A stretch of 64,000 nucleotides of DNA from Mesodorylaimus sp. YZB2_4 (lineage: Eukaryota; Nematoda; Enoplea; Dorylaimida; Dorylaimidae). The position numbers and the translations under genes were made by a program. The notes under the pieces are model-generated. The model saw only the letters and a program-made list of their open reading frames with translations, was not told where the DNA came from and made no database searches. The stretch covers positions 124,001 through 188,000 of the forward strand of contig JASANH010000156.1 of NCBI GenBank assembly GCA_030248295.1. The letters are read 5' to 3'. Shown piece after piece: positions 19,532 to 58,694 of this stretch. How positions within the stretch are numbered: position 1 is the first letter of the stretch; each line of letters opens with the position of its first letter.

Positions 19532-20799
19532 TCATGAGAAGCAGTACCAAGCCGAGACTAGCACAGCAGTGATAACAGCCCTGGAAACAAGTGCACGACA
19601 CGATAAGGACTTTGTGGAACCATGATTGCATCCATCCGTTATGCATGTGAGAATGCAGCCAGTCATTCGATTCCCGTTGTAGACGAAATCACCACACATG
19701 TTGCCCATGTCCTCCAAACCACAGTCGCGAACGTAAAGACTCTCCTTGGTCTTACCTATAAAGAGCGAGGTGTGTACGTGTTCCCAAGCTCGTTCAGAGC
19801 GGATTCAATGAAGAGCCAACCAAAGTTCAGGCTTGGTTATTGCTCTTGCCCAGATCCTAACTAGGCTCAAGTTTCCCATTATTTTTCCCAGACGGTTTTA
19901 GAGGAAGTGTCGTCTATCAGCAGACACACGATGGAACGAAGTTTCTTTAAAGAGTTCTTTTTTCACGAACAATGAACTGGCTAGGCGCTGTTTGCGTGCA
20001 GAGAGGGATCGACAGGGCGCTCTTTATAGTTTTACTTACGACTCTCGCCATGTATTTTTATGCAATATGTTGCCGGAAACAAGCCTTGTCGATCACGTTT
20101 GCCAGCGAAGCAGCTGGGAACGTAGGTGGCATTAATGGCATTGTATGGGTCCTTGCAATATATGTCCGTATCGTCGAATGAAGCGCATCGAAAGCAACCC
20201 AAGGGCGATGCTGGAATGGAAGACCACACTGCATGCACATTGTAGAGGACTAGATACTGCTGCAACACCAGGCCGCCCCCTCAGTGGGACCCCTCTGACA
20301 TAGCCAGAGATTTGGTCGGGACAGTGCAGCTTTGTTACACTGCTGCTATATCTGAAGCTTCTTCCACCATACAGTATCGTAGCGAGGTCATGCCACAAAA
20401 AGGATCTGCCGCCAGCAGAAGCGCGTCGCTTATCCCAACCGTTTCTCAATTATCTTGTTTTTCCATTTTGGTATGTCCTGAGCGCCTTCTCTAGTACGCC
20501 CGCATGTGATTCGAGATGTCAGTACGTTATTGGCCGACAGCTCATTGCGACTATGAATGTCGAAAGATGGTTCTAGTCAGCAGCATGTACTTGTATCCAA
20601 CTTACCCAGTTAGCACATCTCTCAAACGTGCTTCTTACCCACAAAGCCCCCATCCCAGAATTTGGCTGGACTTTGTCAGAGAGTTTTCCCGTCCGACATA
20701 CCGTCCTTCAATCTGGATCGACTTACCGAAAGGTAAAATTTTCAGACAGGCGAAAATAAGGCAAACGAAACAATGCCGAAACGAAACCACGACTCGCAT
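19532..20799 (-). CDS. Quiver/sleepless-like Ly6 GPI-anchored protein
   Basis: Three exons on the minus strand: 20799-20727, 20210-20040 and 19755-19532, in consistent phases 1 and 1, giving 155 residues. An upstream in-frame ATG at 20814 would add five residues. Exon 1 is a signal peptide (MRVVVSFRHCFVCLIFACLK). The mature part begins SPLGCFRCASFDDTDIYC, the two-fingered Ly6 start, then LFPATYCIKIHG, YVRDCGLEDMGNMCGDF and GCILTCITDGCNHG, matching the invertebrate quiver-type Ly6 cysteine pattern. The C terminus is hydrophobic (AVITAVLVSAWYCFS), as expected for GPI attachment. NAT is a potential N-glycosylation site. Family members modulate potassium channels, nicotinic receptors or septate junctions; the partner here is unknown. 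The 5' two thirds of the gene lie in the left arm of an inverted duplication. Confidence 0.88.
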
Positions 20800-21114
20800 A
20801 TCCGCGCCTTGCATGGCAATACGCTCACGCAGGCTCTAAGAAACAGTGAAGATCGACGAGCCTCGAACGGAAGTTCCACTGGATCGCGTTACCCATCAAC
20901 ACATTGGTCAGACAAGTGATTGCATCCAAATTGAGTTCAGATCTACCCATTAGTGTCTCGATGCATTTGGACCGGCAGACAGCAGATAATGGAAAGTGTG
21001 GGACACGAAACGGTGTCCGCCGGGGTCGAGTCGAGGATTCTCGTCGGACTCGCCGCTTCCCACTGTTACACCCTTCACGTCATCACCATTATTGTCCACA
21101 TGCGAACCAGAAAT
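20137..21114 (+). repeat. Left arm of a ~980-bp inverted duplication
   Basis: Inverted counterpart of 23889-24875. The arm includes Ly6 exon 1, intron 1, most of exon 2 and about 300 bp upstream. Stretches of about 190 bp at the inner end are identical between the arms, which implies a recent event. Similarity stops inside Ly6 exon 2 at the outer end. Confidence 0.93.
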
Positions 21115-22613
21115 ACGTTCTGTCTGAAGATGAAGAATAATCGAAAATTATACAGAAGCATATAACTTTGGAGAACTGATTTCAAAGGCGCCCAGCTGAG
21201 CTTAACGTTATTATGAAGGGAGAGCGTAAAATAGGGTATCTGAGATAAATGCCGGGATGGCCATATTTACAGTAGTCTAGTCATATTTTGCTGCACATTA
21301 AAAGCGAAATGCCGCAAGATTCTAATAGCAAGGAGGAAACGGACCTGATCGTGAATGTAAGGGTAGCTAAGAGGCTATGCAGATGGTGTGAGTAGGAAAA
21401 ATTGAGGAGAGGCTAGAAAGTTGAACAAATCTTTGCCGAGGCTGGCGTGCAAGTGAAGTGCGGTCGAGTGAGCAGTCGACAGGGAATGGGAGAGAGGGCT
21501 TTCCCGTTCTGGAATAGTTGCAAATTTCAAATTCCTGGGGATTGGGCGGAGGGCAAAGAGGCGAAATCCTACTGAGCCAATTCTCAGTCAATCACAAGTT
21601 CTTCTTATGAAGTACTCCTCGAGTCCTCTCTGACAACTCTCCCGGAGTCCGTCCATATCCAGCAAGCATTTAGAGTATGGTCAGAGCACTGTGCATTTCC
21701 GTTTCCTCTCCACCCCAGTTCTCATAATGGAGTTTGTTTGCTTCATCGATTGGCCCTCTTCAAGCCGAGGTAGGCGTGGGATTACGAAGCGCGCGAAATT
21801 CGACCACTCCTCCCTTTTTACTAAAGTAATTTTCTTCCGCCTTATCGAACCTGGCAGTTTTAACGGAACAGGGCATACGACTTGTGTGAGCACGGAGTCG
21901 TGTTTCCTGTCTGCAGTCGTCTCTTTTTGTATGACAGTTTGTAAGTGCGATAACGTTTGCAGTCTGCATCCACCCATGGGATGTGTATCCAGCCGAAAAA
22001 TAGGACGTGGTTCGAGGCTTGATAGGACGGCGAGTGGAACCTATCAAGGCATGTTTCACTCTGACTGGAATGCATGCATGCTTCTTCGAGGCCGGGTCTC
22101 AAGAAACAGGACAGGCTTCTAGTGCCTCTTTTCCTCGTCTGACGGTGGCTGTTTTTGCTGCACAACGATTTCTTCAGCTCTTTTGGGCTGCCTAATCAGG
22201 CGAGCACTAGTTTTTTATGGCCTTAGCTCAATCGATCTTGTCCATTGGCGGTATTCGTGCCGTTGCAGCCAAGGGATGTAAGAATTTCGTTGACGTGAAC
22301 ACAGTACGGATAAGGGGTTGCAGACTCCAAGTTTGAGTCGTCGGAAGTCGTCCATAGAGGAGAATCGCCTAGCAGCAGTTGGGATGAGATAATACCAAAG
22401 AGGGAGAGGGGCTAACGTCTTGGAAAGTCATAAATTTTTTAATTCGTGTCCAAGTGCGAGAGAGTGGGTGTGAACAGGGGTCGCCATGGAGCTCTTGCTG
22501 TTTACCGAGACGGGGTAAGAACCGTGGGGCACATGGCATACATACAGTCAGTGTTGGTTCTGATCGTGAGTGTGCACTCTCCAGTTGGTCACAGAATCGG
22601 AGTATGTGTGAAA
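21115..22613. other. Spacer between the inverted arms, upstream of the DEG/ENaC fragment
   Basis: No exon recognised. Several short open frames on both strands near 21.7-22.2 kb have no motif. It should include the DEG/ENaC 5' UTR or promoter. Confidence 0.35.
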
Positions 22614-23548
22614 ATGACTGTGAAAGCGAAACTTAGTGAATTCGCCGAGACCACGTCTATGCATGGCATCTCACACATCAATTCAGCGACCAAGGTCCTG
22701 CTGAAAGTGTTTTGGACCATTGTCGTTTTGGGTGGAATCGTCATCTGTATATGGTACATCTATTCATCTGTCGTGGCTTTCTTACAGTTCCCAGTTTTGG
22801 TCCAGACGGAGGTAAGCACTAGTTGATTCCACCATATAAGATTTGATTGCTGGCGCACAAACCGCCTGTAGAAGTGGGTGAGAGTATAAAAAGATTTTTT
22901 AATAGGTAGGCGATGGAATTTGGGGCATTTCGAGAAGGGTCATTGATGTAAGCACTGAGTGCTAATGCCGAAGGTCCTACTGTATGTCGTCACGACCTGT
23001 TGACCGATGTGCTAGGCCACGACCGCAATTGCTTAACCCGTGTCGTGGCCTAGCAGTTTAAGGCGTCTGTCTCTCACGCTGGGTGCGACCTTACGCGGGA
23101 GGGTTCGACTCCTGCCTGGGGAAAGAATGATTGTCAATTATGTGTTCCTCAGGCCTCGAGTGCTTGGCTATGGATAAAGTATGACATGACATGACATGAC
23201 AGTACTGTACATATCTTAGCCGCTGCACAAACGAAGGGTTGGTCATGGCAGCCCAGGGTAACGCGGGTCTATCAATTACGTCATGCAGCCCATGCATGAC
23301 AAGTTGAATCAAGTTGTAAGAATCAATCTATTGATTCTACGACCTCACTCAAGTATCCCCACATCTAAATTAATGTGTGATTCTAGATCAAGTTCGACAA
23401 ACTTCCATTTCCGGCAGTTACCATCTGTAATTTGAATCCAATCCGCAAATCGCAGATCAGCAAAGTTCCAAAACTCGAGCAATTACTTAGCGTCTGCACC
23501 ATGTCCCCCGAAAAGAACACCACACTCGCACCCACCGATTTCTGCAAG
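22614..23548 (+). CDS. DEG/ENaC channel subunit, 5' fragment only
   Basis: Two exons, 22614-22811 and 23387-23548, join in phase 0 to give 120 residues. The cytoplasmic start contains FAETTSMHGISHI (the conserved HG gating motif), followed by TM1 (VFWTIVVLGGIVICIWYIY) and the post-TM1 signature IKFDKLPFPAVTICNLNP, typical of degenerin/ENaC sodium channels. A donor follows at 23549, but no later ectodomain or TM2 exon is found before the next gene. A normal subunit has over 500 residues, so roughly three quarters are missing. The right arm of the Ly6 inverted duplication starts 340 bp downstream, suggesting the rearrangement truncated the gene. It could be an expressed remnant or a pseudogene. 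The ATG is the first in-frame start before the conserved region. Confidence 0.83.
23036..23201 (+). mobile_element. tRNA-derived SINE with (ATGAC)n tail
   Basis: Sits in the intron of the DEG/ENaC fragment. A-box TGGCCTAGCAG at 23046-23056 and B-box GGTTCGACTCC at 23102-23112 form a polymerase III promoter like that of a Leu/Ser-type tRNA. The acceptor stem does not close, so it is not a working tRNA. A unique body and four ATGAC repeats (about 23181-23200) follow, the usual layout of a SINE 3' end. Confidence 0.75.
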
Positions 23549-23888
23549 GTAATTCTCATCTATGTATTTTGTATTCCCACAATGCCTTAGTCACTTTTTA
23601 GATGTACCGCGACAAGACAATTGCAGCTGCGAGCGGGACAGGAGGATAAATGTTGAGGGTGATACTTTGGGTGACCACTTGGATCGAACATTATTTTATT
23701 GGGCGTGTCTTCTTGTTAGCCGTGCGTTGCATGAATGCCCAATTTATCTAGTTCTAGTTCTAGCTTTACTTGCTAAAACGTAATGCGCACTCAAATAGCA
23801 AGTCACAAAGTAAGAAAAAAAAGCAAAAAAATACATCTACGAAAATGTCATTTTACAAATCGCTTGATAGAAGAAATTATAGTTGTGA

Positions 23889-24875
23889 ATTTCTGGTTCG
23901 CATGTGGACAATAATGGTGATGACGTGAAGGGTGTAACAGTGGGAAGCGGCGAGTCCGACGAGAATCCTCGACTCGACCCCGGCGGACACCGTTTCGTGT
24001 CCCACACTTTCCATTATCTGCTGTCTGCCGGTCCAAATGCATCGAGACACTAATGGGTAGATCTGAACTCAATTTGGATGCAATCACTTGTCTGACAAAT
24101 GTGTTGATGGGTAACGCGGTCCAGTGGAACTACCTTTCGAGGCTCGTCGATCTTCACTGTTTCTCAGAGCCTGCGTGAGCGTATTGCCATGCAAGGCGCG
24201 GATATGCGAGTCGTGGTTTCGTTTCGGCATTGTTTCGTTTGCCTTATTTTCGCCTGTCTGAAAATTTTACCTTTCGGTAAGTCGATCCAGATTGAAGGAC
24301 GGTATGTCGGACGGGAAAACTCTCTGACAAAGTCCAGCCAAATTCTGGGATGGGGGCTTTGTGGGGAAGAAGTACGTTTGAGAGATGTGCTAACTGGGTA
24401 AGTTAAAATACAAGTACATGCTGCTGACTAGAACCATCTTTCGACATTCATAGTCGCAATGAGCTGTCGGCCAATAACGTACTGACATCTCGAATCACAA
24501 CCGGGCGTACTAGAGAAGGCGCTCAGGACATACCAAAATGGAAAAACAAGATAATTGAGAAACGGTTGGGATAAGCGACGCGCTTCTGCTGGCGGCAGAT
24601 CCTTTTTGTGGCATGACCTCGCTACGATACTGTATGGTGGAAGAAGCTTCAGATATACCCACAGTGTGACAAAGCTCCCAGCTGCACTGCCCCGACCGAA
24701 TCTCTGGCTATGTCAGAGGGGTCTTACTGAGGGGGGCGGCCTGGTGTTGCAGCAGTATCTAGTCATCTACATTGTGCATTCAGTGTGGTCTTCCATTCCA
24801 GCATCGCCCTTGGGTTGCTATCGATGCGCTTTATTCGACGATACGGACAAATATTGCAAGGACCCATACAATGCC
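23889..24875 (-). repeat. Right arm of the ~980-bp inverted duplication
   Basis: Reverse-complement copy of 20137-21114 with few substitutions. The 2774-bp spacer (21115-23888) holds the DEG/ENaC fragment and the SINE. Confidence 0.93.
24204..24875 (+). pseudogene. Truncated second copy of the quiver-like Ly6 gene
   Basis: Signal-peptide exon 24204-24276 (alternative ATG at 24189) is intact with its GTAAGT donor. Exon 2 begins at 24802 after a TTCCAG acceptor and reads SPLGCYRCALFDDTDKYC. Similarity to the left copy ends at about 24875, in the middle of exon 2. The frame then runs into unrelated sequence and stops at about 24983. The second half of the Ly6 fold and the GPI signal are absent, so a functional product is unlikely. 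Confidence 0.8.
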
Positions 24876-25085
24876 CATAAAACCAAGGGGAGGTGTGAGC
24901 CAATCTCACATGCAGAGCTTGGTATGCCAAGTTTTAAAGCATGTGCTTCGCACAACCCAAATGATGATAATGTATCACCGTAACAAAGTTGTCATTAGTG
25001 TCCACATGGGTATCACGCAAATGCTCTCAACGAAAGCAATGCACTAGCATTACCATTTTAAAGACAGGTATGTCCGCATTTTAGT

Positions 25086-28000
25086 TCAGCAAGTGTCACA
25101 CAGTTTGGGACAGTAATTGGGCAAGTCTTTGTAAGACGCGCATTGACTCTTGTTATACTTGTCACATTTGAATTTGTTAGAATTGTAGCATTTTGAACCT
25201 GAAAGAAAAAGGGCGCAGTTTGTATTGCCGGAATAATTTTGGGGACTCCTCAAGAATATAGTATATACAGCACAGTACTGAAGAAAAGGCGCTGCACCCT
25301 CCCCCTTGCATCCGCATCCAACCTTCTCCCCATCCGACTTACCATCGCAATTGTTGCACTTGCTCTTGCACAGTTTCAGGTACTTGCCAGGTTGGAAATT
25401 GCACTTATCTTGGTTCACCTTGACGCAGGCTGCCTCATCGCTGTCTACGCACTTGTTATTGTTAGGAGGGGTGGTGGGAAGTGTGCTGGTGGTAGGCGCG
25501 GCTGTAGCCGAAAAGAGTTGCTCACAAAAGCCGCATTTGTTGGGGCAGTAAGGTAGCATGTCATTGGGGAATTTGGTACAGTATCCAACATCTTGACTGC
25601 CATAATAGTTGCAATTGAAAGTTGTCGAGTCAGTGCATTTCTTTCCTGAAAAGATTCAGCGCGATCTTAAAGTACAGGGGTTAGACATGAAGTTTACCAT
25701 CACAGTTGCTGCAAGTTCTTTTGCATTTGGGCAAGTAGGTACCAGGCACACGGTCACACAGCTCTGTGCTGCAGGCGACTTCAGGCTCGTCTTGACAACT
25801 GAGGGGTGCTGGAGTAGTCGAGGCCCAAGTGGTAGGTGGAGGTAAAGTGACTAGTCCGCACCGATCGCATGACTTGGGGCAGTAGCGGGACATGGCGTCC
25901 TTGTAGCGAGAACACCAGTTTATGGAAGAGTAGTAGCTGCAGTTGAAGGAAATGGAGTCGATGCATTTGGTCCCTGTAGGAAAGAAGATGCTGCAACTGG
26001 CATTGCATTCGAATCATACAGCCGTACCATCACAGTTTCCGCAGGTGCCTCGACACAAGGCCATGTACTTTCCTGGTTCCTTCAAACACATTTCACCAAG
26101 CTTGCTGCAATCTATGTCATCCTCACAGTCTTTTTGAGCGGCTGAAGTGTATGCTGGCTTGGGGCGGGTGGTCCTGGGTGTTGTTGAAGACGCGGTAGTC
26201 GACAATGTGGATGTACTTCCCGAAGATTCGCTTGCTCCAGATAAGCTAGATGAAGGCATTGGAGTTGATGAGGTACTAGCAGAAGCTGCGGTGGACACAG
26301 ACGTGCCAGAAGATGATAATGGTGACGTTGAAGTGCTACCAAGAGCTTCACTAGATAAAGACGCTGATGTTGACACTGTGGTGCTTGCTAGGCTTTCGCT
26401 TCCACCAGATGCTGCAGATGTCCAACTCGGCGATGTACGAGTAGAAGTGCTCGCTGGACTTTCGCTTGCTCCAGACGGTGACGATGTTGACGCTGTGGTA
26501 CTTGCTAGACTTTCACTAGCTCCAGATGATGACGATGTTGACGCTGCGGTACTTGCTGGACTTTCGCTTGCTGTAGATGCTGACGATGTTGACGCTGTGG
26601 TACTTGCTGGACTTTCGCTTCCTCCAGATGCTGCAGAAGTCGAACTCGGCCTTGTAGAAGTGCTTGCTGGGCTTTCGCTTGCTGCAGACGCTGACGATGT
26701 CGATGCTGTGGTGCTTGCTGGACTTTCGCTTGCTGCAGACGCTGATGATGTTGACGCTTTGGTGCTTGCTGGACTTTCGCTTGCTGCAGACGCTGACGAT
26801 GTTGACGCTGTGGTACTTACTGGACTTTCACTAGCTCCAGACGCTGATGATGTTGACGCGGTGGTACTTGCTGGACTTTCGCTTCCTCCAGATGCTGCAG
26901 AAGTCGAACTCGGCCTTGTAGAAGTGCTTGCTGGGCTTTCGCTTGCTGCAGACGCTGACGATGTCGATGCTGTGGTGCTTGCTGGACTTTCGCTTGCTCC
27001 AGACGCTGACGATGTTGATGCTGTGGTGCTTGCTGGGCTTTCGCTTGCTGCAGACGCTGACGTTGTTGATGCTGTGGTGCTTGCTGGACTTTCGCTTGCT
27101 CCAGACGCTGATGATGTTGACGCGGTGGTGCTTGCTGGGCTTTCGCTTCCTCCAGATGCTGCAGAAGTCGAACTCGGCCTTGTAGAAGCGCTTGCTGGGC
27201 TTTCGCTTGCTGCAGACGCTGACGATGTCGATGCTGTGGTGCTTGCTGGACTTTCGCTTGCTGCAGACGCTGACGATGTCGATGCTGTGGTGCTTGCTGG
27301 GCTTTCGCTTGCTGCAGACGCTGATGATGTTGACGCTTTGGTGCTTGCTGGACTTTCGCTTGCTGCAGACGCTGACGATGTTGACGCTGTGGTACTTACT
27401 GGACTTTCACTAGCTCCAGACGCTGATAATGTTGACGGGGTGGTGCTTGCTGGGCTCTTGCTTCCTCCAGATGCTGCAGAAGTCGAACTCGGCCTTGTAG
27501 AAGTGCTTGCTGTGCTTTCGCTTGCTGCAGACGCTGACGATGTCGATGCTGTGGTGCTTGCTGGACTTTCGCTTGCTCCAGACGCTGATGATGTTGACGC
27601 GCTGGTGCTTGCTGGACTTTCACTCGCTCCAGACGCTGATGATGTTGACGCGCTGGTGCTCGCTGGACTTTCGCTTGCTGGAGACGCTGATGATGTTGAC
27701 GCGGTGGTGCTTGCTGGACTTTCACTACCTCCAGACGCTGATGATGTTGACGCGGTGGTGCTTGCTGGGCTTTCGCTTCCTCCAGATGCTGCAGAAGTCG
27801 AACTCGGCCTTGTAGAAGTGCTTGCTTGGCTTTCGCTTGCTGCAGACGCTGACGATGTCGATGCTGTGGTGCTTGCTGGACTTTCGCTTGCTCCAGACGC
27901 TGATGATGTTGACGCGGTGGTGCTTGCTGGGCTTTCGCTTCCTCCAGATGCTGCAGAAGTCGAACTCGGCCTTGTAGAAGTGCTTGCTTGGCTTTCGCTT

Positions 28001-29842
28001 GCTGCAGACGCTGACGATGTCGATGCTGTGGTGCTTGCTGGACTTTCGCTTGCTCCAGACGGTGATGATGTTGATGCTGTGGTGCTTGCTGGGCTTTCGC
28101 TCGCTCCAGACGCTGATGATGTTGACGCGCTGGTGCTCGCTGGACTTTCGCTTGCTGCAGACGCTGATGATGTTGACGCGGTGGTGCTTACTGGACTTTC
28201 ACTAGCTCCAGACGCTGATGATGTTGACGCGGTGGTGCTTACTGGACTTTCACTAGCTCCAGACGCTGATGATGTTGACGCGCTGGTGCTCGCTGGACTT
28301 TCGCTTGCCGCAGACGCTGATGATGTTGACGCGGTGATGCTTACTGGACTTTCACTAGCTCCAGACGCTGATGATGTTGACGCGCTGGTGCTTGCTGGAC
28401 TTTCACTACCTTCAGACGCTGATGATGTTGACGCGGTGGTGCTTGCTGGGCTTTCGCTTCCTCCAGATGCTGCAGAAGTCGAACTCGGCCTTGTAGAAGT
28501 GCTTGCTGGGCTTTCGCTTGCTGCAGACGCTGACGATGTTGATACTGTGGTGCTTGCTGGGTTTTCGCTAGCCCCAGATGTTGAACTTGGCTTTGAAGAA
28601 GTGCTTGCTGGACTTTCGCTTGCTGCAGACGCTGATGTTGTTGACACTGTGGTAGTACCAGATGTGTCACTTGCTCCAGACGCTGAAGATGTCGAAGTTA
28701 GCATTGAAGAAGCGCTTCCTTGACTTGCGCTTGCTGCAGAAGCCGCTGATGTCGATAACGATGTGCCGCCAGTTGATCCGGATGTTAATACTGGTGTCGT
28801 TGAGAGGCTCCCAGTTTCACTTGCTCCAGATGTTGATCCTTGTGGTGTAGACTGAGTCGACGTGAAGGAGGCTCCACCAGCAGTTGTGCTTTCACTTGAC
28901 ACTGATGTCGTGCTAGCACCTGCTGTTGCTGTTGTTGATGACGTGTCGCCTAAATGCATTTGAGACGAACCCATTGTTAAACGACTACTAATTTGGCAAA
29001 TATCGAATTACTGCCACTTACAGCAAAGGCCTTTCGAATCACACGTGTTCTTGTCGTTGGGGCAGGTTGCTGATGTGCATCCATCCTTGCTGGCTTCGAA
29101 TGCCTTGCCCTTGTAACTGTACGTGGTTGCCGTTCGAAATTGACACACGACTACGTAACCTGATAATTTTTCTGGTGCTGTATTTTCGATTTCACTGCAC
29201 TTGACTTTAGCGCAGCCGACAGCGACATTATCGTGATAGATGATCTGTGGCAAAATAGATGGTAAAATCATAAAGCCACGCATATATACTAATCAAGGAC
29301 GAAGGACCTTACAGATTTGTAGTTATAGCATTCCGGGCTGCACTCTCCAGTCTCGGTATCATAGGCCATCGTCGCCCCCTCGACGTACATTTGAGCGAGG
29401 GCGTTGTCGTAGGTTGGGTTGTCCACCACCACCAAGGCTTCAAGGAAGTCCAATCCCGTTCTTGGCTTAGCATCACACTGCCGAGCCCTCTCATAGGCAC
29501 TGAACTCCAAATCTAAGTCATATTTCTAAAGCAGGTTGTCAAACCCTCACGGTTTTGAGTTCAAGCCTAATCCTGTTCTCTTACCAAGCACCTCATTCCT
29601 TGAGGCGAAACGTTTTCTTGCGGCTTAGGCCGGAACACACTATTCAAGTTCTCCAGAATCATATACCTCTCCAATTCGGATGGTGTGTCTGTGTCCGTCG
29701 GTTCTACAAGGCAATGCAGGAGTAACTGACGCTCAATCATGTTGTTCCTTTATCTCCTTACCAGCGTAATCTTCATTGCGCTTGACCCTTTGAAGTTGGC
29801 GGGCGTCTGGTAACTTCTCGCGATGGCCCCAAGATCCCCCAA
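25086..29842 (-). CDS. Secreted CAP-domain mucin with six ShKT domains
   Basis: Minus-strand exons: 29842-29762 (tentative), 29703-29585, 29525-29313, 29244-29022, 28949-26028, 25973-25698, 25645-25343, 25198-25086; about 1415 residues plus an unidentified signal-peptide exon. A CAP/SCP domain comes first (MRCLKYDLDLEFSAYERARQ, then NVAVGCAKVKC and a CNDKNTCD-like Cys-rich end). The 2.9-kb exon then encodes about 930 residues of Ser/Thr/Ala repeats resembling SESPASTTASTSSASA, a likely O-glycosylated mucin. It ends with ShKT 1; the next exons carry ShKT 2-3, 4-5 and 6, each with six cysteines, joined through NCDG glycine codons in phase 1. Two ShKT subtypes alternate. Family members include nematode surface-coat and excreted mucins. 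The CAP active-site His/Glu residues are not evident. The paralogue lies directly upstream at 30594-32360. Confidence 0.88.
26420..28720 (-). repeat. 51-bp coding minisatellite of the mucin region
   Basis: About 2.3 kb of tandem near-identical units of 51 bp encoding a 17-residue Ser/Thr/Ala unit. Higher-order blocks recur in which a variant unit with STRPSSTSAASGG (a 57-bp insertion form) appears about every third to sixth unit. Likely length-polymorphic. Confidence 0.88.
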
Positions 29843-57559: not shown

Positions 57560-57948
57560 CTTTTGCCTCTGGCCAGCCAGCAGTCAAACCTTACAAGGTG
57601 AGCAAGGCTGCGGGGGACAAGCGCACAGGGCAGCTTCCCTCTGCGTGTCTCCAGCACCTCCACGCGAGGGCGTCCTGGACTGCACACCAACTTCCTCGGA
57701 CGACGCCGGGTGGGTGGTGAACCCTGTTGGTGTTCGACAGCCGAGACTGTCTACTCGTTTGGCGTCCGTCTCTCCACCCGGAGCACCTCGGCGGTACCGG
57801 GTCACCCAAGGCCTGGCTTGCAAGGTCAGCGAGGGTTTATGGTTCGCAAACCGACCTCCATCACTGGAGATTGAACCCGGGACGAGCATAGCCGTTCGCT
57901 CTCAAGCAATACGGAGACATGAATGGCCAAACCTCTGCACCCGCGACC
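57560..57948 (-). mobile_element. tRNA-derived SINE, copy 1
   Basis: Reads on the minus strand from a tRNA-like head (A-box region near 57935, B-box GGGTTCAATCTCC near 57880) into a body of about 300 nt. Roughly three quarters identical to the plus-strand copy at 58331-58694. The open frame through it is the SINE body, not a gene. Confidence 0.75.
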
Positions 57949-58330: not shown

Positions 58331-58694
58331 TGAGGGTGCAGCGGTTGGGCTTCGTCTCTCCATACTGCTTGAGAGCGAGTGGCTGGACTCGTCCTGGTTC
58401 AATCCCCGGTGATGGAGGTCGGCTTGCGAGCCGTAAACCCTCGCTGACTTGCACGCCAGGCCGTGGGTGACTCACCTGGTTGCTCTAGTGGACATACGAA
58501 GGCCAAACGAGGAGACAGTTTCGGCTGTCCAACACCGACAGCCCACCCGCCATCGTCCGAGGAAGTCGGTGTCCAGTCGAGGATGCCCTCGCGTGGAGGT
58601 GCTCCTAGTGGAGACACGCAGAGGGAAGCTACTGTGTGTGCGGGTCCCCGCATAGCCCTGCGCATAAGGTTTGACTGCTGGCTATAGGCAAAAA
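58331..58694 (+). mobile_element. tRNA-derived SINE, copy 2
   Basis: Plus-strand copy of the same family: tRNA-like head with TGCAGCGGTTGGGC and B-box GGTTCAATCCC at about 58396, then the shared body with CGTCCGAGGAAGTCGGTG-type sequence, ending in TTTGACTGCTGGC near 58682. It lies head to head with copy 1, 380 bp apart. Confidence 0.75.

What the first reader, a model, noticed from the sequence alone, without database searches (positions are those of the whole stretch)
20137..24875. Recent inverted duplication of a Ly6 gene bracketing a broken ion-channel gene
Two arms of about 980 bp in opposite orientation, with long identical stretches, flank 2.8 kb that holds only the first two exons of a DEG/ENaC subunit. 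The left arm keeps a complete quiver-like gene; the right arm keeps its signal-peptide exon and half of exon 2. The breakpoint inside exon 2 and the channel truncation next to the right arm suggest one rearrangement created both. Inverted arms can also yield double-stranded RNA and may trigger small-RNA silencing of the intact Ly6 gene.
Basis: partly seen in the sequence, partly recalled or inferred. Interest (0 to 1): 0.75.

Follow-up and report, generated by a model that had tools for sequence, protein, structure and literature searches.

The report
Partial inverted copy of Ly6 gene
In a genome that looks like a roundworm's, the front half of a cell-surface (Ly6) gene was copied backwards to the far side of a neighbouring short ion-channel-like gene; the copy looks like an ordinary young gene fragment, and the neighbour is probably an intact short gene rather than one broken by the event.

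Summary
Window 20137-21114 matches the reverse complement of 23889-24875 at 96.6% over 987 columns; no third copy was found in the 145-Mb genome. The left arm is the 5' half of a complete three-exon quiver/Ly6 gene. The right arm carries about 300 bp upstream, exon 1, intron 1 and 74 bp of exon 2, then runs into a 35-codon unrelated tail: a partial duplicate with recruited sequence, a class reported as frequent among young C. elegans duplicates.

The broken-channel reading is not supported. The DEG/ENaC-like gene between the arms has a likely terminal exon (23602-23649), giving 135 aa. Its two closest paralogs also lack detectable further channel exons, and no long inverted repeat lies beside them. 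A 74%-identical metagenome protein (145 aa) and a Romanomermis protein (165 aa) share the short layout. The right arm starts 239 bp past the proposed stop.

Arm divergence is uneven (8 events in the inner 769 bp, 11 in the outer 218 bp; p = 0.007), suggesting gene conversion. Gene orientations do not favour a hairpin transcript. The repeat is ordinary; the short DEG/ENaC genes interest more.

The parts
20137..21114 (-). Left arm of the inverted repeat: the presumed parental Ly6 copy's upstream region, exon 1, intron 1 and first part of exon 2
   Evidence: 96.6% to the reverse complement of 23889-24875; differences column by column
23889..24875 (+). Right arm: the presumed daughter copy (about 300 bp upstream, exon 1, intron 1, first 74 bp of exon 2)
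   Evidence: no match in the genome apart from the left arm and itself
19532..20814 (-). Complete Ly6/quiver-like gene, 155 aa: exon 1 20799-20727 (an in-frame ATG also at 20814, read by eye), exon 2 20210-20040, exon 3 19755-19532; signal-peptide-like start, 10 cysteines before a C-N, hydrophobic tail
   Evidence: PF17064 QVR E=9e-8, over cut-off (on an earlier hand-joined model that lacked a few residues at the joins); spliced translation and GT/AG sites; cysteine count
24204..24983 (+). Daughter Ly6 fragment: exon 1 24204-24276, exon 2 part 24802-24875, running on into a 35-codon non-homologous tail, stop at 24981-24983; 3 of the 10 family cysteines plus 2 in the new tail
   Evidence: 84-aa frame; counts; no Pfam family at E<=0.1 for an earlier hand model; the DNA 24870-25110 matches only itself in the genome
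22614..23649 (+). Short DEG/ENaC-like gene between the arms: exon 1 22614-22811, exon 2 23387-23548, likely terminal exon 3 23602-23649; 135 aa
   Evidence: PF00858 positions 1-90, E=2e-25; exon 3 from acceptor scan, spliced frame; relatives P0001 and P0012
21115..23888 (.). Spacer between the arms; its only scored matches elsewhere in the genome are to one dispersed repeat
   Evidence: 40 of 2229 first-look candidates scored
23031..23211 (+). Dispersed SINE-like repeat inside intron 1 of the DEG/ENaC-like gene
   Evidence: the 40 matches outside the locus lie within query 1917-2097

Best explanation
A local DNA-level duplication copied about 980 bp of a Ly6/quiver gene (upstream region, signal-peptide exon, intron 1, part of exon 2) in inverted orientation. 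The copy landed between the 3' ends of two convergent genes: a short DEG/ENaC-like gene and a downstream cysteine-rich gene. The left gene remains intact and presumably does the work. The right copy is a partial duplicate with recruitment: it keeps the upstream region, start and splice sites, but only the first 3 of 10 Ly6 cysteines, and it ends in a 35-codon tail read from DNA unrelated to the left gene. It is most likely a decaying or neutral fragment. The inner three quarters of the arms were probably homogenised by gene conversion after the duplication. The DEG/ENaC-like gene was not broken by the event; it was already a short, single-transmembrane gene. Shown: the arms, the absence of other copies, the frames and splice sites, the uneven divergence. 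Inferred: direction (left to right), DNA-level mechanism, conversion, completeness of the short gene, fate of the right copy.
For: Arms and absence of other copies. Intron 1 retained, so not a retrocopy. No target-site duplication abutting the right arm and no matching base at either junction. All three differences in the 49 shared codons are non-synonymous, so no sign of constraint on the fragment. Uneven divergence: 8 merged substitution events in the inner 769 bp against 11 in the outer 218 bp, change-point p = 0.007 on 20,000 uniform draws (one-sided), mean-position p = 0.005. Within the intron alone 4 events in 381 bp against 8 in 144 bp, Fisher p = 0.005 at a split chosen from the data, so coding constraint does not explain it. 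Short channel gene: 0 of 3 short-type loci (window, C64b, C35) show profile hits beyond position 130 at E<0.1 in their own downstream DNA, against 7 of 9 other DEG/ENaC loci. A GT follows directly after D-x-C-(K/A) in all three, phase 0. P0001 (145 aa, 74%) and P0012 (Romanomermis, 165 aa) share the layout up to and past that cysteine. No inverted pair of 60 nt or more beside C64b or C35.
Against: No reads, transcripts or sister genome were available, so an assembly error or the opposite direction of copying is not formally excluded. The exon 3 call rests on a small motif: a tail start this similar to P0001 and P0012 follows 9 of 962 or 7 of 514 candidate acceptors in the window (0.9-1.4% each), and seven candidate acceptors lie in the 752 bp scanned, so chance is not remote. 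A whole-tail alignment was not better than shuffles (p = 0.24 window, 0.58 C64b). No convincing terminal exon was picked in C35. The profile also missed downstream exons in 2 of 9 control loci. Short DEG/ENaC frames are common in the protein collection (1300 hits), many surely single exons or fragments, so a short length proves little by itself; P0002 and P0003 look like single exons. P0001 could end at its contig's end (986 bp). The longest difference-free run in the arms is not unusual alone (p = 0.22). The last 34 codons of exon 2 show no third-position excess against C64b (17, 14, 18).
Confidence: 0.7

Rival explanations
1. One rearrangement made the right arm and truncated a formerly full-length DEG/ENaC gene, whose exons 3 onward were lost or moved.
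For: No TM2 or ectodomain exons were detected in the window or in 10 kb on either side. DEG/ENaC relatives in this genome such as C9 and C29 have several further exons.
Against: The closest paralogs C64b and C35 also show no further exons, with no long inverted repeat beside them. Close relatives elsewhere are short: up to 74% identity among proteins of 66-210 aa against 35-45% among long ones, the best E-value 7e-10 at 38%. P0001 and P0012 go on past the shared cysteine with short tails and end there; whether P0001 ends at a stop codon is not shown. The arm starts 239 bp beyond the stop of the likely exon 3.
Confidence: 0.16
2. The inverted arms are a regulatory device: an inverted-repeat transcript gives dsRNA and small RNAs that silence the intact Ly6 gene.
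For: Arms of about 980 bp at 96.6% could pair if transcribed together.
Against: Left Ly6 runs leftward from about 20814, the right copy rightward from about 24204, the DEG/ENaC gene rightward from 22614. No predicted transcript covers both arms and all predicted Ly6 RNA is sense. No RNA data.
Confidence: 0.04
3. Assembly artefact (palindromic chimera or haplotype mis-join).
For: No reads to inspect.
Against: Arms differ by 25 substitutions and three indels, unevenly spread; the spacer and the right flank match nothing but themselves and one dispersed repeat, the flanks of the two arms are unrelated, and the window has no N.
Confidence: 0.05
4. The right copy is a new functional chimeric gene: a secreted 84-aa protein with part of a Ly6 domain and a new tail.
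For: Start codon, signal-peptide exon and splice sites intact, open frame to 24983; no difference in exon 1 and 5 in about 319 bp upstream.
Against: Only 3 of 10 Ly6 cysteines before the new tail; 3 of 3 coding differences are amino-acid changes; no Pfam match.
Confidence: 0.1

Closest known systems
Partial duplicates with recruitment among young C. elegans gene duplicates (review PMC3449122 and study PMC2728529; matching passages seen, not the whole texts)
   Same: Incomplete copy of a gene whose frame runs on into sequence not derived from a second gene duplication. The review gives 21% partial (perhaps about 38%) and 40% chimeric (perhaps 23%) among 290 young C. elegans pairs
   Different: Another species; inverted around a neighbouring gene; uneven arm divergence
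Quiver (QVR) family of Ly6/uPAR-type domains, PF17064
   Same: Left gene matches the whole 86-position profile; ten cysteines ending in C-N, hydrophobic tail
   Different: Right copy stops after three of the ten cysteines; no Pfam match
DEG/ENaC (ASC) channels, PF00858
   Same: N-terminus, first transmembrane helix and the FPAVTICN segment
   Different: No ectodomain or second transmembrane helix detected; likely 135-aa product

Membership tests
Quiver/Ly6 family (PF17064) | Profile match over the whole domain, above the curated cut-off (left gene) | tested here: met
   33.4 bits against cut-off 27.3, profile 1-86 of 86
Quiver/Ly6 family (PF17064) | Ten-cysteine pattern ending in C-N | tested here: met
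   10 cysteines from residue 25 to the D-G-C-N; that this count defines the fold is recalled
Quiver/Ly6 family (PF17064) | Secreted and GPI-anchored | not testable with these tools
   Signal-like start and hydrophobic tail seen in the sequence only
Quiver/Ly6 family (PF17064), right copy | Complete Ly6 domain | tested here: not met
   Homology ends after 74 of 171 bp of exon 2; no Pfam family
DEG/ENaC channel (PF00858) | N-terminus and first transmembrane segment | tested here: met
   90.1 bits, cut-off 23.6, profile 1-90 of 455
DEG/ENaC channel (PF00858) | Cysteine-rich ectodomain and second transmembrane/pore segment | tested here: not met
   No hit beyond profile position 130 at E<0.1 in the window or 10-kb flanks; the same test finds them in 7 of 9 other loci, so a miss is possible
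Partial duplicate with recruitment | Part of the parental frame lost, new frame sequence not from a second duplicated gene | tested here: met
   Presumed parent is the left gene; DNA of the tail matches only itself in the genome
Retrocopy | Loss of introns | tested here: not met
   Intron 1 is present in both arms
Transposon-carried gene fragment | Target-site duplication or other copies | tested here: not met
   No abutting duplication; a shared 5-mer TGTGA ends next to the left junction but lies 18 bp off the right one; two genome copies only
Hairpin RNA source of small RNAs | Transcript crossing both arms; antisense small RNAs | not testable with these tools
   No RNA data; predicted genes point outwards

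The most novel reading that the evidence does not exclude
Romanomermis-like nematodes keep a set of short DEG/ENaC genes (here perhaps three: the window gene, C64b, C35) that encode only the N-terminus, first transmembrane helix, the FPAVTICN-x-NPIRKSQ segment and a D-x-C stub. Such single-pass proteins could join channel trimers or their assembly as non-conducting regulators. The window's gene would be a complete member of this set that the inverted Ly6 duplicate happens to flank.
Probability: 0.4. Interest if true: 0.5.

Novelty: new member of a known kind. Interest (0 to 1): 0.27.

Why it matters
The inverted repeat is one more young-looking partial duplicate, a class reported as frequent in C. 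elegans; its value is as a clean example with a visible parent, uneven arm divergence and a recruited tail. The neighbouring gene matters more: a conserved short DEG/ENaC gene would be a testable single-pass relative of a pore-forming family, and it corrects the reading that the channel was broken by the duplication. I saw no paper on such genes in three searches of the open-access library, of which I saw only listings: 19 papers hold the terms, 12 listed; none; 16, 8 listed.

Tried and rejected
Retrocopy: rejected, intron retained. Transposon capture: no target-site duplication and no further copies. Full-length paralog as donor of the DEG/ENaC exons: rejected, the next best places in the genome are C64b (55% on exon 2, 39% on exon 1) and then weaker ones. 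Missing exons near by: tblastn with a C7 exon and with C9 exons, and a profile of nine of the genome's own DEG/ENaC frames run with filters off, gave nothing convincing in the window or 10-kb flanks; the best tblastn scores there were 9 residues at 41750-41724 on the minus strand (E = 0.023) and 25 columns in the right flank (E = 0.058). A short match of a C9 exon (RQLAECPAYGV, E = 0.24) lies 0.9 kb downstream of C64b and was not followed up. The PF00858 scan of the genome lists no place on contig C172, but it scored 93 of 1086 candidates and does not list the window's own exons, so it proves nothing. Single origin of the short genes: not resolved; the five short rows of 25 need two changes on the tree, and 4% of bootstrap trees have one. 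Whole-tail alignment of exon 3 to P0001: no better than shuffles.

Controls against my reading and rows dropped: 2 of 9 other DEG/ENaC loci with an N-terminal profile hit (C281 near 62.7 kb, C290) also showed no downstream hit at E<0.1; C290 had only about 2.6 kb examined and C281 only weak hits (E 1.2 and 2.8). A tenth stretch (C281 near 73.5 kb) was left out of the count because its one hit straddles position 130, and the one late hit on the C64 stretch was given to a further gene at its end.
Full report
Observation. Self-comparison of the 64-kb window gives one long inverted pair around the reported place: 20137-21114 against 24875-23889, 96.6% over 987 columns, 25 mismatches and 9 gap columns. 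The repeat finder finds the same arms in ungapped pieces of 516, 269, 154 and 56 nt. The genome that holds the window (145,146,385 bases, 1067 contigs; the window is contig C172, 124001-188000) contains two matches to the arm, both here. The 241 bp at and beyond the right-hand end of the right arm match only themselves. The spacer matches only itself, except for a dispersed repeat.

What organism. Named proteins near the channel-like gene come mostly from nematodes: Brugia, Parascaris, Toxocara and, by profile, Romanomermis; sea cucumber and starfish proteins follow in the search of long proteins. I take it to be a nematode, possibly nearer to Romanomermis; this is inference.

The Ly6 gene. 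On the minus strand the spliced frame 20799-20727, 20210-20040, 19755-19532 translates without a break into 155 aa, with GTAAGT donors and TTCCAG/TTATAG acceptors. An earlier hand-joined model, a few residues shorter, matches the quiver family PF17064 over all 86 positions, E = 9e-8. It starts with a signal-like stretch, has ten cysteines ending in C-N and ends in a hydrophobic tail (read by eye). Other Ly6-like places in the genome are far more distant, 33-42%.

The right copy. It keeps the upstream 300 bp or so, exon 1, the intron and 74 bp of exon 2, then leaves homology. The frame 24204-24276 plus 24802-24983 encodes 84 residues, the last 35 from sequence unrelated to the left gene. No Pfam family matches it. 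In the 49 shared codons there are three differences, all changing the amino acid. In the terms of the review PMC3449122 (passages seen) this is a partial duplicate with recruitment. PMC2728529 (passages seen) puts partial and chimeric together at about 50% of young C. elegans pairs; the review gives 56-86% for C. elegans and D. melanogaster. I did not find their figures for inverted copies. Retained intron, no abutting target-site duplication, no microhomology visible and no other copies point to a local DNA-level event rather than retrotransposition or transposon capture.

Divergence along the arms. Merging substitutions within 3 bp gives 19 events. They lie towards the outer end: 8 in the inner 769 bp and 11 in the outer 218 bp; a change-point as strong is reached by 0.7% of uniform placements (one-sided), the mean position by 0.5%. 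The longest free run (208 bp at the inner end) is not significant alone (p = 0.22). The change falls inside the intron (4 events in 381 bp against 8 in 144 bp), so coding constraint is not the reason. Gene conversion over the inner part is the simplest account, so the overall identity is a poor clock and 'recent' is not established.

The channel-like gene. Exons 22614-22811 and 23387-23548, joined, match PF00858 positions 1-90 of 455. I looked for the rest of a channel with a C7 exon, with C9 exons and with a profile built from nine frames of the own genome: nothing beyond profile position 130 at E<0.1 in the window or in 10 kb on either side. The same profile shows such hits downstream of 7 of 9 other DEG/ENaC loci (C9, C29, C7, C64a, C7b, C12, C119; not C281 near 62.7 kb and C290) and of 0 of 3 loci of this type (window, C64b, C35; the one late hit on the C64 stretch belongs to a further gene at its end). 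A tenth stretch, C281 near 73.5 kb, was not counted because its hit straddles position 130. C64b and C35 have no inverted pair of 60 nt or more in the 8.0 and 9.5 kb around them. So the shortness is shared by the nearest paralogs without such a repeat, which argues against the inverted repeat as its cause. In all three, exon 2 ends with D-x-C-(K or A) before a GT, phase 0.

A terminal exon. In the window a 53-bp intron with a TTTTTAG acceptor leads to MYRDKTIAAASGTGG and a stop; in C64b a 61-bp intron leads to a 20-residue end; in C35 nothing convincing was picked. Relatives elsewhere: P0001, 145 aa, 74% over the whole query, with the two exons joined and a tail CQNYNQK... after the shared cysteine; P0012 of Romanomermis, 165 aa, tail CEKYAQR.... 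The window's CKMYRDK resembles both. A match at least this good follows 9 of 962 acceptors with a fair pyrimidine tract and 7 of 514 with a better one in this window, while alignment of the whole tails is not better than shuffles (p = 0.24 window, 0.58 C64b). Among proteins of about 250-790 aa the six relatives found reach 35-45%, the best E-value 7e-10, although spliced genes of unannotated nematodes would be missing there. Short DEG/ENaC frames as such are common in the collection (1300 hits of 3197 candidates, 120 listed), many probably single exons, so length alone is weak evidence; P0001 counts because it spans the joined exons. Against C64b, third positions differ most (47, 39, 73 over 120 codons; dN 0.49, dS 2.8, saturated), which fits coding constraint, but not in the last 34 codons (17, 14, 18). 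On a tree of 25 N-terminal parts, window pairs with P0001 (86/93) and C64b with P0012 (95/90); whether all short genes share one origin is unresolved.

The right arm starts 239 bp after the stop of the likely exon 3, and the next gene, on the other strand, ends around 25089 by its open frame. The duplicate therefore appears to sit between two 3' ends. I see no broken gene except the duplicate itself. The dsRNA idea needs a transcript through both arms; the three predicted transcripts run leftward from about 20814, rightward from 22614 and rightward from 24204, so none does, and all Ly6 RNA predicted is sense.

Verdict. Real, not found elsewhere in the genome, and ordinary in kind: a partial inverted gene duplication with recruited tail, beside a probably intact short DEG/ENaC-like gene. 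The second part deserves follow-up more than the first.

Noticed in passing
23031-23211: SINE-like dispersed repeat in intron 1 of the DEG/ENaC-like gene, with what looks by eye like tRNA-type A and B boxes; 40 scored matches outside the locus at 79-89%, 2229 first-look candidates.
   Followed up: partly
57561-57942 and 58334-58693: A second inverted pair in the window (78%). The first member belongs to a dispersed repeat of about 382 bp; 39 other places scored at 81-84%, 3096 first-look candidates.
   Followed up: partly
26306-28756: A 51-bp tandem array of about 43 units inside a 997-codon open frame on the minus strand: Ser/Thr/Ala-rich 17-residue repeats, mucin-like, next to cysteine-rich ShK-like stretches (the ShK match of the neighbouring frame is below its cut-off).
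   Followed up: no
G000 contig C64:360466-361773: Two DEG/ENaC genes head to head, one short type (C64b) and one with further exons (C64a).
   Followed up: partly
G000: Large DEG/ENaC family: 114 PF00858 matches listed with only 93 of 1086 candidates scored.
   Followed up: no
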